From a virus: a stretch of 56,663 nucleotides of DNA. The stretch is from positions 1 through 56,663 of IMG/VR virus record IMGVR_UViG_3300036792_000179; one strand, 5' to 3'. Made by a program: the position numbers and the translations under genes. This document shows, one piece after another, positions 1-56,663 of this stretch (within the stretch, counting starts at the first letter, position 1; every line of letters begins with the position of its first letter). The notes under the pieces were generated by a model. That model was not told the DNA's origin and did no database searches. It saw only the letters and a list, made by a program, of their open reading frames with translations.

Positions 1-138
1 TGGAAGATGCTTGGCAACGGCCCCGATCAGACAGCCCCCGGAGCCGCTGCGCAGGGCTGCGGCGACTGTGTCTGGGCCTCGGCCGATCACGAGACGATGC
101 TCGCTCTGACCGACGCAGGGCAGTCTCCAGCCGACGTT
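1..138. repeat. Terminal direct repeat, left copy
   Basis: Bases 1-138 repeat at 56526-56663 with a single difference (T at 12, G at 56537), which is a silent CTT/CTG leucine change in the overlapping reading frame. This is most simply the overlap left when a circular genome is assembled as a linear contig, so the true unit is about 56525 bp. The mismatch would then reflect strain variation or a read error. A biological terminal redundancy is possible but not needed. Confidence 0.95.
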
Positions 139-12582: not shown

Positions 12583-13017
12583 ATGCCCTACAAGGACCCC
12601 GCAAAGAAGCGCAAAGCGCAGCGTGAGTGGATCGCGCGCAGACGTGCCGAATGGCTTGAGGGTAAGTCCTGTGTGGACTGCGGCTCAACGGAGAACCTTG
12701 AGCTGGATCACGTCGACCCAGCCGAGAAGATCCACCACGCGATCTGGTCGTGGTCGAAGGTCCGGCGCGACGCTGAGATCGCCAAGTGCGTTCCTCGCTG
12801 CGCCGAGTGCCATCACGAGCGCCACGCGTCCGAACGTCGCAGCCACGGACATGGTGGCTACACGCGTGGCTGCCGCTGCGAGGTCTGCAAGGCGGCGAAG
12901 AGGCGAGGACGCGAATCGAACGCGCGTAAACGGCTTTGCAGGCCGCTGCCTAACCACTCGGCCACCTCGCCAGAGCAGGCATCCTACTCTCAGCTCGAAC
13001 TCGGCGAGGCCGCCTGA
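12583..13017 (+). CDS. HNH endonuclease with a second Cys-rich domain
   Basis: 144 residues. An HNH core (CVDCGS, LELDHVDP, CVPRCAECHHERH) is followed by GYTRGCRCEVCKAAKRR, a small motif often found in actinophage proteins. The last 35 residues are simply the opposite strand of tRNA-Cys, so the natural protein may once have ended earlier. It immediately follows the integrase. Confidence 0.75.
   Translation: MPYKDPAKKRKAQREWIARRRAEWLEGKSCVDCGSTENLELDHVDPAEKIHHAIWSWSKVRRDAEIAKCVPRCAECHHERHASERRSHGHGGYTRGCRCEVCKAAKRRGRESNARKRLCRPLPNHSATSPEQASYSQLELGEAA
12901..12971 (-). tRNA. tRNA-Cys (anticodon GCA), antisense to the HNH gene
   Basis: On the minus strand: acceptor GGCGAGG/CCTCGCC (perfect), D stem GCC/GGC, anticodon stem GCGGC/GCCGT around CTGCAAA, T stem GCGCG/CGCGT around TTCGATT. 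No CCA is encoded. A complete tRNA next to the integrase gene suggests it contains or abuts the phage attachment site, recreating the host tRNA on integration; it may also be expressed from the phage. Confidence 0.88.
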
Positions 13018-49818: not shown

Positions 49819-49970
49819 GCAAAAGCGCCGAGGAGCTGCGCGCACTCTGGCGACTAAGCGAGGAAGGCCGCTCCTACGAGGAGTTCCCCGATGGTGCTAC
49901 GTGGGCCGATCTAGAGGACGCCAAGCAGCTGTACGAAAGGGAGCACGGCGATGCCGGGCGAAACGACTAA
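49815..49970 (+). CDS. Small hypothetical protein in the baseplate module
   Basis: 51 residues from GTG overlapping TGA. Acidic and helical (SAEELRALWRLSEEGRSYEE). Overlaps the fibre gene by 20 bases. Uses GAG codons unlike its neighbours. Not recognised. Confidence 0.55.
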   Translation: MSKSAEELRALWRLSEEGRSYEEFPDGATWADLEDAKQLYEREHGDAGRND

Positions 49971-50652
49971 CTACAAATTCAAGTACGCCATCGCGGTCGA
50001 TGAAATCAAAGCCTTCCCGGCCGAAGTCAGCCAACCGGGGGCCGAAAAGGTCGACGCGATCATCAAAGAACGTACCCTAACGATCAAAACCTATGCCGGG
50101 GCCGGCACCTTGAAAACCGGCGAACTGGCAATTCAGGAAAAATCGAATGAAACGTTCACGCTGCCGTCGGCGTCAACGGCCAACCAACTCATTGGAGTCT
50201 TTGCGGGTGCCTCCGCCACGGGCGTCAAAGTCACGACGAGCGGTGGCGTGAACATTGCCGGTGACTTCTTCGCCGGCCCGACTCTCACGCTGGCGAACAA
50301 TCAGCATGTGCTGTTGCTCAGTACCGGGGTCGGCTGGATCATCCTCGCCGGGGAACCAAAGCGTGAACAGACGTATGGCACGTTCCTGGCACTTACAGCC
50401 GCGAAAGAAGAAGAAGTAAGCGCATCGCGGCCAGCACTCGTAATCATTGGTGCGGAAAAGATTACGAGTGCTGGCGAACTACACGTCGAAGCCCAGGTTG
50501 GCGGCCAGACGCCTGGGATTATCAAAGTGGCAAAAGCGGAAGTCGGCGACTTTTATTCGATAGGCGGGTTTCGTGTTCCGGCCGGGCTCAAGTATAAGGC
50601 CACTAGTTCCGGCGGCGCATCCGCCCTGTTCCGGCAGATTCTCCTGGAATAG
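49951..50652 (+). CDS. Tail fibre / receptor-binding protein (putative)
   Basis: 233 residues, last gene of the tail module. Almost entirely beta (TLTIKTYAGAGTLKTGELAI, TFTLPSASTANQLIGVFAG), with a repetitive polar sequence typical of fibre shafts, then a different C-terminal region that could bind receptor. No enzyme motif. Confidence 0.65.
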   Translation: MPGETTNYKFKYAIAVDEIKAFPAEVSQPGAEKVDAIIKERTLTIKTYAGAGTLKTGELAIQEKSNETFTLPSASTANQLIGVFAGASATGVKVTTSGGVNIAGDFFAGPTLTLANNQHVLLLSTGVGWIILAGEPKREQTYGTFLALTAAKEEEVSASRPALVIIGAEKITSAGELHVEAQVGGQTPGIIKVAKAEVGDFYSIGGFRVPAGLKYKATSSGGASALFRQILLE

Positions 50653-50653
50653 C

Positions 50654-51199
50654 TCAGTGAAAGGCAAGTGCGATACGACCATTGGGCATGCGTAGACGAT
50701 AAGGTACGCAAATAGTGGGTACTTCACCTACTAGTTCCCAATCCATCACAGACGAGCCCGAGGTGTGGAGCTCCGGGATGCCCAAGAGATTCCCGAACTC
50801 GTGTAGGAACATAGTGCAGAGCGACCAAAACGCCTGGTCGTCAGTGGTCCAATCGGGCCACGCGCGGCGATTGAGGACGATCGCGCATTCGGTAAAACTA
50901 GTGGCTGGCGATTCCTTGCTGTTACGCCCTGAGGGCGAGTTCCACGTTGACCAACCTTCAGGTTCTATGCCGCCGAGGGCAGCTTCGAATTCAGGCGTTG
51001 GGAGTTCAGATCTGACTTCTACGTGGCCGCCGCAGGGGTATTGGTGCCAGAAGATGCTCGCCCGTTTGACTGCCAACGTGATCGGATTATCGGCCGCGTA
51101 AGAAGCATGTGCATCAGGCGGAACGAGCGCGGCGAGCAGAGCAAGAGAGAGGGCTACCTTGAGCGCCCAGACATTAGGTGAGGGCACCGTGAGAGTCAA
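50654..51199 (-). CDS. Secreted metzincin-like protein with altered zinc site
   Basis: 181 residues from TTG overlapping the lipoprotein stop. A Sec signal peptide (LKVALSLALLAALVPPDAHA, cut before SYAA) is followed by a domain ending in HEFGNLLGIPELH and SVMDW, resembling the HExxHxxGxxH motif and Met-turn of metzincin proteases (matrixin type). The second histidine is Asn, from a single-base change (AAT for CAT), so zinc binding and activity are doubtful. Leftward, opposite to the surrounding tail and lysis genes. Confidence 0.7.
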   Translation of the reverse strand: MTLTVPSPNVWALKVALSLALLAALVPPDAHASYAADNPITLAVKRASIFWHQYPCGGHVEVRSELPTPEFEAALGGIEPEGWSTWNSPSGRNSKESPATSFTECAIVLNRRAWPDWTTDDQAFWSLCTMFLHEFGNLLGIPELHTSGSSVMDWELVGEVPTICVPYRLRMPNGRIALAFH

Positions 51200-51708
51200 A
51201 TGCGCGGAGCGGGATGCACATCCGCGCGGCCCCAGACTCGATCAACGCCACGATCCCATTCTTCCCGTGCAGGCCCGTACTGTGCAGTGAAGCGCGCAAG
51301 CGTCGCAGGGTTGGGATTGCCGGTGTAGGTCACAAGCGATCCCATCGCGTTCTTGAGTTCGTTCGCGGAATGCCAGATTTCTGTCTCAGCTTCTTCGAGG
51401 TGCGAGTCGCCTTTGCTATCGGCAAACGAGTTGCGCACCTGATCTAGCTGATCGTGCGCTTCTTGAGCCAGCTTTGCTAGTTCGTCGACCGTTTCCGTGG
51501 TTTCTTCTTTCTCGACAAGGCCAACGTCGGTGAGCACCGCTTGCACATTGGCCTGGACAAGCTTCGCCGCTTCGCCGTGTTCGTGAACATATTCGGCCGC
51601 CGCGCTGCTTGGCCCAGTCGAGTCAGCCGAGCTGCTGCTAGACGAGCTCGAGGAGGCACAGCCGCCAAGCACCAGCGCCATCCCTAGCGCGATGATTGCG
51701 TTTCGCAT
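51196..51708 (-). CDS. Lipoprotein with serine-rich linker
   Basis: 170 residues from ATG 51708. Signal sequence AIIALGMALVLGGC ends in a lipobox (L-G-G-C), so the mature protein is lipid-anchored at Cys17; a run of nine serines follows. The mature part is helical and acidic (VDELAKLAQEAHDQLDQVRN). First gene of a two-gene leftward operon with the metzincin-like protein. It may be expressed from a prophage to alter the cell surface. Confidence 0.75.
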   Translation of the reverse strand: MRNAIIALGMALVLGGCASSSSSSSSSADSTGPSSAAAEYVHEHGEAAKLVQANVQAVLTDVGLVEKEETTETVDELAKLAQEAHDQLDQVRNSFADSKGDSHLEEAETEIWHSANELKNAMGSLVTYTGNPNPATLARFTAQYGPAREEWDRGVDRVWGRADVHPAPRI

Positions 51709-51870: not shown

Positions 51871-52203
51871 GTGGCTGGCGTTGAGGACCGCGTAGCGCGC
51901 CTTGAGCGCGACTACGCACGCCTGGATCAACGCGACGTGAACGCCTCCCAGCAGCTGCAAAGCCTCACGCCCCTGCCGACCCAGATGGTGCGGCTGGAGT
52001 CGGGGCTCGAAGCCCTGCGCGACGGGCTGAAGGCGGTCAAGGAGGACATCGACGAGCTGCGCGACGGGATCAGCGACAGGACCAAAGAACAATCAGAAGA
52101 GCGACGGTCCTTGAAGCTCGCCCTGATCGGCTTGACCGGCGTCATCGGAGCGGCCTTGATCGGCGGCGTCTTCCTCCTACTGGCTGGGAGCGGTGTCTCG
52201 TGA
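51871..52203 (+). CDS. Coiled-coil protein with C-terminal membrane anchor
   Basis: 110 residues from GTG 51871 (no ATG in frame; a stop lies upstream). Residues 1-80 form an alpha-helical coiled coil; residues 86-106 (ALIGLTGVIGAALIGGVFLLL) are a membrane span. First of four small membrane proteins before the lysozyme gene, so probably part of the lysis system, for example a holin regulator or spanin-like factor. Confidence 0.65.
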   Translation: MAGVEDRVARLERDYARLDQRDVNASQQLQSLTPLPTQMVRLESGLEALRDGLKAVKEDIDELRDGISDRTKEQSEERRSLKLALIGLTGVIGAALIGGVFLLLAGSGVS

Positions 52204-54639: not shown

Positions 54640-54830
54640 TGAAGTTTGTTCTCTATGTCTACAAGTACGCCAAATACGTTGGCGGCGAACTTGAGTGCCA
54701 CGCCTATGGCCCGGCCGACGGCGAGCTGTTTGCGGATGAGCAGACTGCGCAGAATGCCGGCGTCGCCGTGGCGCAGAACGACGGTGCCGAGTTCATGGTT
54801 CTCCCCGTCGAAGGGCTGCCGACGATCTGA
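54639..54830 (+). CDS. Small hypothetical protein
   Basis: 63 residues from ATG 54639 (TGATG overlap). KFVLYVYKYAKYVGGELECH and EFMVLPVEGLPTI. Mixed alpha-beta, not recognised; lies between two glycosidase genes. Confidence 0.6.
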   Translation: MKFVLYVYKYAKYVGGELECHAYGPADGELFADEQTAQNAGVAVAQNDGAEFMVLPVEGLPTI

Positions 54831-55942
54831 TGACTGTCACCCCGACAAACCTCAAGATCACCCCCGGAGTCGAAAAGCTCTCGCTCGCCTGGTCCGCCTC
54901 ATCGACCGAAGGTCTCGGCGGCTGGGTGATCCACTACAGGCCGAAGGGCGTCACTGCTTGGACGACGGACGAGCTCGCGGCGGAAGCCCGCAGCTTCTCC
55001 ATCACCGGCTTGCAGGCAGAGAGCTACGAAGTCCAGGTACGCGCTCTCGTTGCCGGTGGGCTCGCTCAGGGCGTCGCTACGCCGGAAGCGAAGCCTGCGC
55101 CTCCGGTCGAACCACCGCAGTCGGCCCTCGTCATCGGAGTTGACACCGGAGGATGGGGCGGAAGTCTTCTAGCCGAACTCTCAGCTGCCGGGATCAAGCG
55201 AGTGCGCACGAGCGTCCTCTCCGCAGCCCACCACGACGAACTGGCCAAAGCCGGGCTCACTGCAGCAGCGGTGACGGTCGGCGCCTACGGCTCGCTCGCT
55301 GGCCGCAATCCGCAGACCTACGCACAGGAATGGGTCGCCGCTGCGAAGGTCTACGCGACGCCTGGCTCAGAGGATGAAACGCGCTGTGAAGTGATCAACG
55401 AGCCCGAGCTCTCCTCGGACCCAACCGACTTCGCCGCCTACGTGGCGATCCTCAAGGCGGTCTACGAAGCCCGCAACGCCGCGTTCCCGGGCAAGCGTCC
55501 GAAGATCCTCGCGTCCTGGGCGCCGACGTACGGATTCGGCAAGGGCTGGGCTGCGCTTGGAGGTCTGCAGTACGTCGATGAGGTCGTCGTCCACGCCTAC
55601 GGCGGCAACGCTCATCAGCACAAAGGCCTCGAAGGCGGCCGGGAACTGATCGAACAGGCGTACAACGAATCGAAAAAGCCCGTGGCCGTGACCGAGGTCG
55701 GCTGGCCTACCGGACGCAGTGTCGGGATCACGACTCCAACGGGCGACTCCGAACAGTGGACTGAACTGCAGCAGGCCGAAGCGATCAAGCGCTTTGCCGC
55801 CTGGTGTCACTCAAAGCCCTACGTGAGCGTGTTCATCTACTTCAACGCTGTCGACTACGGCACGAACGACCTCTACGGGATCGAGCGTGCCGACCGGACG
55901 CACAAGCTTGGGTTCAAGGCCCTGGCTGAAGTCGCCGCCTGA
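54830..55942 (+). CDS. Fibronectin type III plus clan-A glycoside hydrolase
   Basis: 370 residues. Residues 1-95 are an FN3 domain (LKITPGVEKLSLAWSASSTE, ESYEVQVRALV), then a linker of Pro, and a (beta/alpha)8 hydrolase: VINEPE with the acid Glu191, and VTEVGWPTG with the nucleophile Glu289, as in GH5/17/39-type enzymes. Probably attacks a wall or surface polysaccharide. No signal peptide, so it may travel on the virion or need lysis. Confidence 0.75.
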   Translation: MTVTPTNLKITPGVEKLSLAWSASSTEGLGGWVIHYRPKGVTAWTTDELAAEARSFSITGLQAESYEVQVRALVAGGLAQGVATPEAKPAPPVEPPQSALVIGVDTGGWGGSLLAELSAAGIKRVRTSVLSAAHHDELAKAGLTAAAVTVGAYGSLAGRNPQTYAQEWVAAAKVYATPGSEDETRCEVINEPELSSDPTDFAAYVAILKAVYEARNAAFPGKRPKILASWAPTYGFGKGWAALGGLQYVDEVVVHAYGGNAHQHKGLEGGRELIEQAYNESKKPVAVTEVGWPTGRSVGITTPTGDSEQWTELQQAEAIKRFAAWCHSKPYVSVFIYFNAVDYGTNDLYGIERADRTHKLGFKALAEVAA

Positions 55943-56400: not shown

Positions 56401-56663
56401 GCGCTCGCAACTTCGGTCTCAAGCCCAAGACGCAGGACGGCCGCGACTTCCTCCTGAGCGCTCAGACGCTGCCGCCGGTTCCGAAGAAGGTATTCGGCCA
56501 CGGCAACACGTTCGCGGGAGACGCGTGGAAGATGCTGGGCAACGGCCCCGATCAGACAGCCCCCGGAGCCGCTGCGCAGGGCTGCGGCGACTGTGTCTGG
56601 GCCTCGGCCGATCACGAGACGATGCTCGCTCTGACCGACGCAGGGCAGTCTCCAGCCGACGTT
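56397..56663 (+). CDS. Papain-like cysteine peptidase-like protein, N-terminal part
   Basis: ATG 56397 overlaps the previous TGA. The first 45 residues (RNFGLKPKTQDGRDFLL, PPVPKKVFGHGNTFAG) and the QGCGDC motif are here; the rest continues at base 1 through the circular junction to 696. See the entry at 1-696. Confidence 0.65.
   Translation, partial: MSARNFGLKPKTQDGRDFLLSAQTLPPVPKKVFGHGNTFAGDAWKMLGNGPDQTAPGAAAQGCGDCVWASADHETMLALTDAGQSPADV
56526..56663. repeat. Terminal direct repeat, right copy
   Basis: Right-hand copy of the 138-base overlap with the start of the window, differing at one base (G at 56537). Confidence 0.95.

What the first reader, a model, noticed from the sequence alone, without database searches (positions are those of the whole stretch)
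50654..51708. Leftward cargo operon: lipoprotein plus metzincin-like protein with His-to-Asn change
Two exported proteins, transcribed against the surrounding late genes, are typical of lysogenic-conversion cargo. The motif HEFGNLLGIPELH differs from a normal zinc-protease motif by one residue and one base. It may be an inactive protease used to bind, a protease with changed metal use, or a strain mutation. The lipoprotein may anchor or regulate it.
Basis: partly seen in the sequence, partly recalled or inferred. Interest (0 to 1): 0.7.

Follow-up and report, generated by a model that had tools for sequence, protein, structure and literature searches.

The report
Phage-borne matrixin-like protein, altered zinc site
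A virus of soil actinobacteria carries two host-type exported proteins, a membrane-anchored lipoprotein and a relative of secreted zinc proteases whose metal site is altered at two of three positions, so it is probably a surface-acting gene pair whose protease-like member may no longer cut protein.

Summary
The two leftward genes are real. The second (51199-50654) is a secreted member of a matrixin-like (M10-type) family in Solirubrobacterales. Homology holds with the active-site region removed (E 9e-25), and four cysteines and the catalytic Glu are kept. Against HExxHxxGxxH/D, position 5 is Asn and position 11 is Glu. All 34 homologues aligned have His at position 5; at position 11, 26 have His and 6 Asp. 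So Asn is unique to this sequence, while Glu could still bind metal. The first gene is a lipoprotein of a rare, separate host family. Prophages with related terminases place the host in Solirubrobacteraceae. The closest syntenic phage lacks the pair, and host homologues are not found together, so this is accessory cargo assembled in the phage. The nearest published analogue is the Listeria prophage mtz-tim pair, which needs an active HExxH. Function here is unproven. Best reading: lysogen surface cargo with a catalytically impaired metzincin. With one sequence only, polymorphism or error at the Asn codon is not excluded.

The parts
51196..51708 (-). Lipoprotein gene, 170 aa (ATG 51708; start uncertain, possibly GTG or TTG upstream). 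Signal peptide with lipobox VLGG|C, Ser-rich linker, helical domain.
   Evidence: homologues L104 (39-40% id, E 8.9e-28), L105, L121, L122; model (four helices, low confidence)
50654..51199 (-). Secreted matrixin-like (metzincin) protein, 181 aa (TTG 51199, overlapping the lipoprotein stop as TTGA; alternative GTG 51187). Type I signal peptide ending near AHA|SY, four family-conserved Cys.
50765..50803 (-). Zinc-site motif HEFGNLLGIPELH: His1 (50803-50801), Glu2 (catalytic), Asn5 (50791-50789), Gly8, Glu11 (50773-50771), His13 (50767-50765).
50741..50752 (-). Met-turn-like SVMD (Met152 codon 50746-50744), retained although most of the Asp-ligand subgroup lacks the Met.
49951..50652 (+). Upstream rightward tail gene; converges on the cassette with a 1-base gap. 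Its first part is conserved in L011.
51871..52203 (+). Downstream rightward coiled-coil/TM protein at the start of the lysis-side region; L011 has a similar gene right after its tail gene, without the cassette.
50430..50475 (.). 19-bp inverted repeat (95% complementary, 8-nt loop) about 180 nt downstream of the metzincin stop; strong hairpin, no U-tract; possible terminator of the leftward operon.
   Evidence: z -4.9

Best explanation
A temperate contractile-tailed phage of Solirubrobacteraceae carries an accessory (moron) operon inserted between its tail and lysis genes and transcribed leftward. It encodes (1) a lipoprotein anchored on the outer face of the cytoplasmic membrane with a helical domain and (2) a secreted matrixin-like protein. 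Both were recruited separately from host gene families. The matrixin-like protein keeps the fold-defining residues (four Cys, catalytic Glu, Gly8, Met-turn) but has lost the second zinc-ligand His (Asn) and has Glu as the third ligand. It is therefore most likely a catalytically dead or strongly weakened metzincin that acts by binding at the cell surface (envelope protein, peptidoglycan-associated target, or the partner lipoprotein). In the lysogen this would alter the envelope, either protecting against other phages or tuning sensitivity to lysis. Shown here: gene content, homology, export signals, ligand changes, accessory status. Inferred: lysogenic expression, partnership of the two proteins, inactivity, and the phenotype.
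For: Homology without the zinc region, E 8.9e-25. H-bearing homologues hit Pfam Matrixin, one well above its cut-off (32.5 vs 24 bits). Position 5 is His in 34/34 homologues; position 11 is His in 26 and Asp in 6. The cassette is absent from the syntenic phage L011 and no metzincin was found in the terminase-related prophage regions fetched. Prophage terminases 48-56% identical lie in the same bacterial family. Host copies of the two genes are in unrelated neighbourhoods, not paired. A phage metzincin plus lipoprotein pair acting on the cell wall has been characterised in Listeria (PMC8235301). Lipoprotein superinfection exclusion by temperate phages is known (Ltp; PMC3952083).
Against: Only one sequence of this exact gene is known, so the Asn cannot be shown to be under selection; polymorphism, error or decay remain possible. 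The contig's own end overlap shows one mismatch in 138 bases. Retention of the catalytic Glu and Met-turn would suit a protein still binding metal through His1 and Glu11. There is no expression evidence, and only one promoter-like site was found, at chance level. The AlphaFold model is poor (pLDDT 62) and Foldseek is inconclusive.
Confidence: 0.5

Rival explanations
1. Active but non-canonical metalloprotease: His1, Glu11 (and perhaps Asn5 or His13) hold a metal, so the protein still cleaves, as a variant of the Asp-ligand subgroup. It may cleave and release its partner lipoprotein, as Listeria Mtz does with Tim.
For: The catalytic Glu, Gly8 and Met-turn are intact. Third-ligand Asp is natural in the family, and Asp-to-Glu at this position is reported in the related mini-zincin family (PMC3890501). 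The pair layout resembles mtz-tim, where cleavage matters.
Against: No homologue lacks His at ligand 2. Asn is a poor zinc ligand (general knowledge). Listeria Tim is described as TIMP-like, whereas this lipoprotein is predicted helical (low confidence) and belongs to a family without fixed metzincin neighbours.
Confidence: 0.2
2. Random mutation, assembly consensus error or early decay of an otherwise ordinary active cargo protease.
For: The Asn codon AAT is one base from a His codon. Single contig; 1/138 mismatch in the contig end overlap. Low codon-usage score. Long branch in the tree (1.77 changes per column).
Against: The ORF is full length with no stop or frameshift, and all structural Cys are kept. 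A second ligand position (Glu11) has also changed, and by two bases from any His codon, so a single error does not give a normal H/H/H site.
Confidence: 0.25
3. The two genes are not lysogenic cargo but lysis-stage helpers: surface proteins expressed late to loosen the envelope next to the endolysin and holin region.
For: The location abuts the lysis-side genes (TM proteins, GH25 endolysin). Listeria mtz-tim often lies next to holin-lysin and increases lysis.
Against: The genes run against late transcription. L011 has lysis genes in the same place without them.
Confidence: 0.15

Closest known systems
Pfam PF00413 Peptidase_M10 (Matrixin) / metzincins
   Same: Host homologues hit this family (32.5 bits vs cut-off 24). 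The window protein shares the C....HE.G..G scaffold, Met-turn and catalytic Glu with them.
   Different: The window protein gives no Pfam hit, and two of three zinc ligands differ (Asn5, Glu11). The family here has four conserved Cys and, unlike secreted MMPs, no propeptide was recognised.
HExxHxxGxxD subgroup within the same Solirubrobacterales family (L032, L034, L035, L043, L055)
   Same: Window protein is 23-34% identical to the four members aligned in A2, with a carboxylate third ligand and the same Trp/Cys pattern and C-terminal VP..C.
   Different: All have His at ligand 2 and lack the Met-turn Met. Tree placement of the window sequence is unresolved.
Listeria prophage mtz-tim pair (PMC8235301)
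   Same: Secreted metzincin plus lipoprotein, adjacent genes, accessory in prophages, often near lysis genes of a Gram-positive host.
   Different: Mtz has canonical HEXXHXXGXXH/D and its activity is needed. Tim is described as TIMP-like, ours is predicted helical. Gene order is reversed here. No sequence relationship was tested.
Ltp-type superinfection-exclusion lipoproteins (phage TP-J34; PMC3952083)
   Same: Temperate-phage lipoprotein tethered outside the cytoplasmic membrane.
   Different: ltp lies in the lysogeny module. No sequence similarity was tested, and there is no exclusion phenotype for our gene.

Membership tests
Metzincin / matrixin (M10) | HExxHxxGxxH/D zinc-binding motif | tested here: not met
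   HExxNxxGxxE in the window protein; 34/34 homologues have His at ligand 2
Metzincin / matrixin (M10) | Catalytic Glu after the first His | tested here: met
   Glu134
Metzincin / matrixin (M10) | Met-turn downstream of the motif | tested here: met
   SSVMD, aligned with the homologues' Met column
Metzincin / matrixin (M10) | Sequence homology to members outside the motif | tested here: met
   Profile lacking the motif, E 8.9e-25; homologues pass the PF00413 cut-off. Direct Pfam scan of the window protein: no hit
Metzincin / matrixin (M10) | Metzincin fold | tested here: inconclusive
   Model pLDDT 62; the motif lies at the end of a helix; Foldseek hits weak (selecase E 0.55, archaemetzincin E 6.1)
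Metzincin / matrixin (M10) | Zinc-dependent proteolysis | not testable with these tools
   needs purified protein
Bacterial lipoprotein | N-terminal signal with lipobox ending in Cys | tested here: met
   MRNAIIALGMALVLGG|C; homologue L105 has ASSG|C; others are TM-anchored
mtz-tim type phage pair | Secreted metzincin and anchored partner encoded together in a prophage or mobile element | tested here: met
   the window is a temperate phage genome
mtz-tim type phage pair | Catalytically competent HExxH metzincin | tested here: not met
   Asn at ligand 2
mtz-tim type phage pair | TIMP-like (beta) partner | tested here: inconclusive
   Single-sequence model all helical, pLDDT 52
Lysogenic-conversion cargo (moron) | Accessory: absent from close relatives at the same locus | tested here: met
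   L011
Lysogenic-conversion cargo (moron) | Expressed in the lysogen from its own promoter | not testable with these tools
   Promoter scan at chance level

The most novel reading that the evidence does not exclude
The phage uses a fixed pseudo-metzincin with an HExxNxxGxxE site (altered or no metal), paired in one operon with a helical surface lipoprotein, as a non-proteolytic envelope-modifying or superinfection-exclusion device: a counterpart of the Listeria mtz-tim pair in which catalysis has been given up.
Probability: 0.25. Interest if true: 0.6.

Novelty: new variant of a known kind. Interest (0 to 1): 0.36.

Why it matters
If the substitution is fixed, it is a phage-borne matrixin relative with two altered zinc ligands, beside a lipoprotein. 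It would widen the phage metzincin/lipoprotein theme from Firmicutes to deep-branching actinobacteria, whose phages are almost unstudied. It would also give a natural test of what a metzincin does without its normal zinc site. It further documents a secreted matrixin-like family with H or D third ligands in Solirubrobacterales.

Tried and rejected
Direct searches with the protein found nothing in Pfam, PHROGs, NCBIfam, PDB sequences, phages, IMG/VR or GTDB contigs. HExxN DNA patterns in viral contigs gave only unrelated short frames. Two further family patterns and the A1 alignment found no viral relative, so no close viral homologue is known here. Alignment A2 was not conserved enough for a viral scan. 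Typing slip: in A1 one N-terminal letter of the L014 fragment was wrong; A4 was rebuilt from DNA references and gives the same invariant columns. Structure: AF2 was limited to loci allowed by the tool, Foldseek inconclusive. TIMP-like inhibitor reading of the lipoprotein considered and not supported. Conserved host pairing of the two genes tested and not found. Weak lipoprotein hits (E above about 1e-10) were treated as lipobox or low-complexity matches.

Full report
What is there. The window is a virus record of 56,663 bases. Its two ends overlap by 138 bases with one mismatch, so it is close to a complete, circularisable genome. It encodes an integrase, terminase, portal, capsid, tail sheath, baseplate J and a GH25 endolysin, so it is a temperate contractile-tailed phage. 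Between the last tail gene (49951-50652, +) and a coiled-coil/TM gene at the start of the lysis side (51871-52203, +) lie two leftward ORFs: a lipoprotein (51708-51196) and a second exported protein (51199-50654) that overlaps its stop codon.

Host. Patterns built on the metzincin hit Solirubrobacterales genomes. Six of 146 genomes of the family of G327 carry terminases related to this phage's, the best four 48-56% identical over most of the protein. The host is therefore very probably Solirubrobacteraceae.

The metzincin-like protein. No library recognises it directly. Homologues from Solirubrobacterales align end to end: W51, C56, G58, C105, C128, H133, E134, G136, G140 and C164 are invariant in both alignments. 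A profile of six homologues with the zinc region cut out still finds the window ORF at E 8.9e-25, against 7.3e-35 with it, so the relationship does not rest on the motif used to fish for it. Several homologues match Pfam Matrixin; L029's scores 32.5 bits against a cut-off of 24.

The zinc site. Across 34 homologues ligand 2 is always His; ligand 3 is His in 26 and Asp in 6, one has Gln and one is cut off by a contig end. The window has Asn at ligand 2 and Glu at ligand 3. Glu for Asp is a mild change, and Glu-for-Asp swaps at this position are reported in a related mini-zincin family (PMC3890501). Asn for His is the severe change and is unique here. Substituted HExxH sites are known in many zincin families, with roles mostly unknown (PMC3650047).

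The lipoprotein. It has a lipobox and belongs to a small family: L104 (39-40% identical, E 8.9e-28), L105, L121 and L122, anchored by lipobox or TM helix. A single-sequence model is four long helices (pLDDT 52), unlike the TIMP-like partner reported in Listeria. Its homologues are not beside metzincins, and host metzincins sit among unrelated genes. The pairing therefore seems to be the phage's own.

Accessory status. L011, with 38-61% identical tail proteins in the same order, has no such genes between its tail gene and its coiled-coil/TM gene. No metzincin was found in the fetched parts of terminase-related prophages; those with unrelated tails are weak evidence.

How it may work. Closest in concept is the Listeria prophage mtz-tim pair: a secreted metzincin cleaves a lipoprotein and changes the cell wall, and loss of the catalytic Glu abolishes this (PMC8235301). 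Our pair shares the layout but not the intact zinc site, and sequence kinship was not tested. I therefore favour a surface cargo whose metzincin is impaired and acts by binding (0.5). Rivals are an active variant site (0.2), a polymorphism, error or decay (0.25), and a lysis-stage helper (0.15); the last is not exclusive of the others.

Limits. One sequence only. No expression data. Promoter scan at chance level. Structure models are of low confidence. The tree leaves the window sequence's place unresolved on a long branch.

Noticed in passing
window 50430-50475: 19-bp near-perfect inverted repeat inside the upstream tail gene, forming a very stable hairpin (MFE -37.9, z -4.9); absent from the L011 counterpart. 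Possible terminator of the leftward operon.
   Followed up: partly
window 1-138 and 56526-56663: Contig ends overlap by 138 bases with one mismatch, so the genome is nearly complete and circularisable.
   Followed up: yes
window 12900-12971 (-): tRNA-Cys gene about 300 bp after the integrase; possible attachment site.
   Followed up: no
window 54830-55942: Fibronectin/glycosyl-hydrolase-core-like protein downstream of the GH25 endolysin; weak Pfam hits only.
   Followed up: no
L125 7600-8280: Lipoprotein-family homologue next to a serine recombinase, KAP-type P-loop proteins and a secreted HNH protein; looks like a mobile or defence-type island.
   Followed up: partly
L119 2511-3779: Lipoprotein-family homologue in a host contig beside a gene that looks phage-like (tail-completion type) by eye; possible prophage remnant (Pfam scan negative).
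   Followed up: partly
L036, L028, L066: Host members of the metzincin family with other active-site substitutions (HNVGH, REVGH, HEYEH...Q): active-site loss recurs in the family.
   Followed up: no
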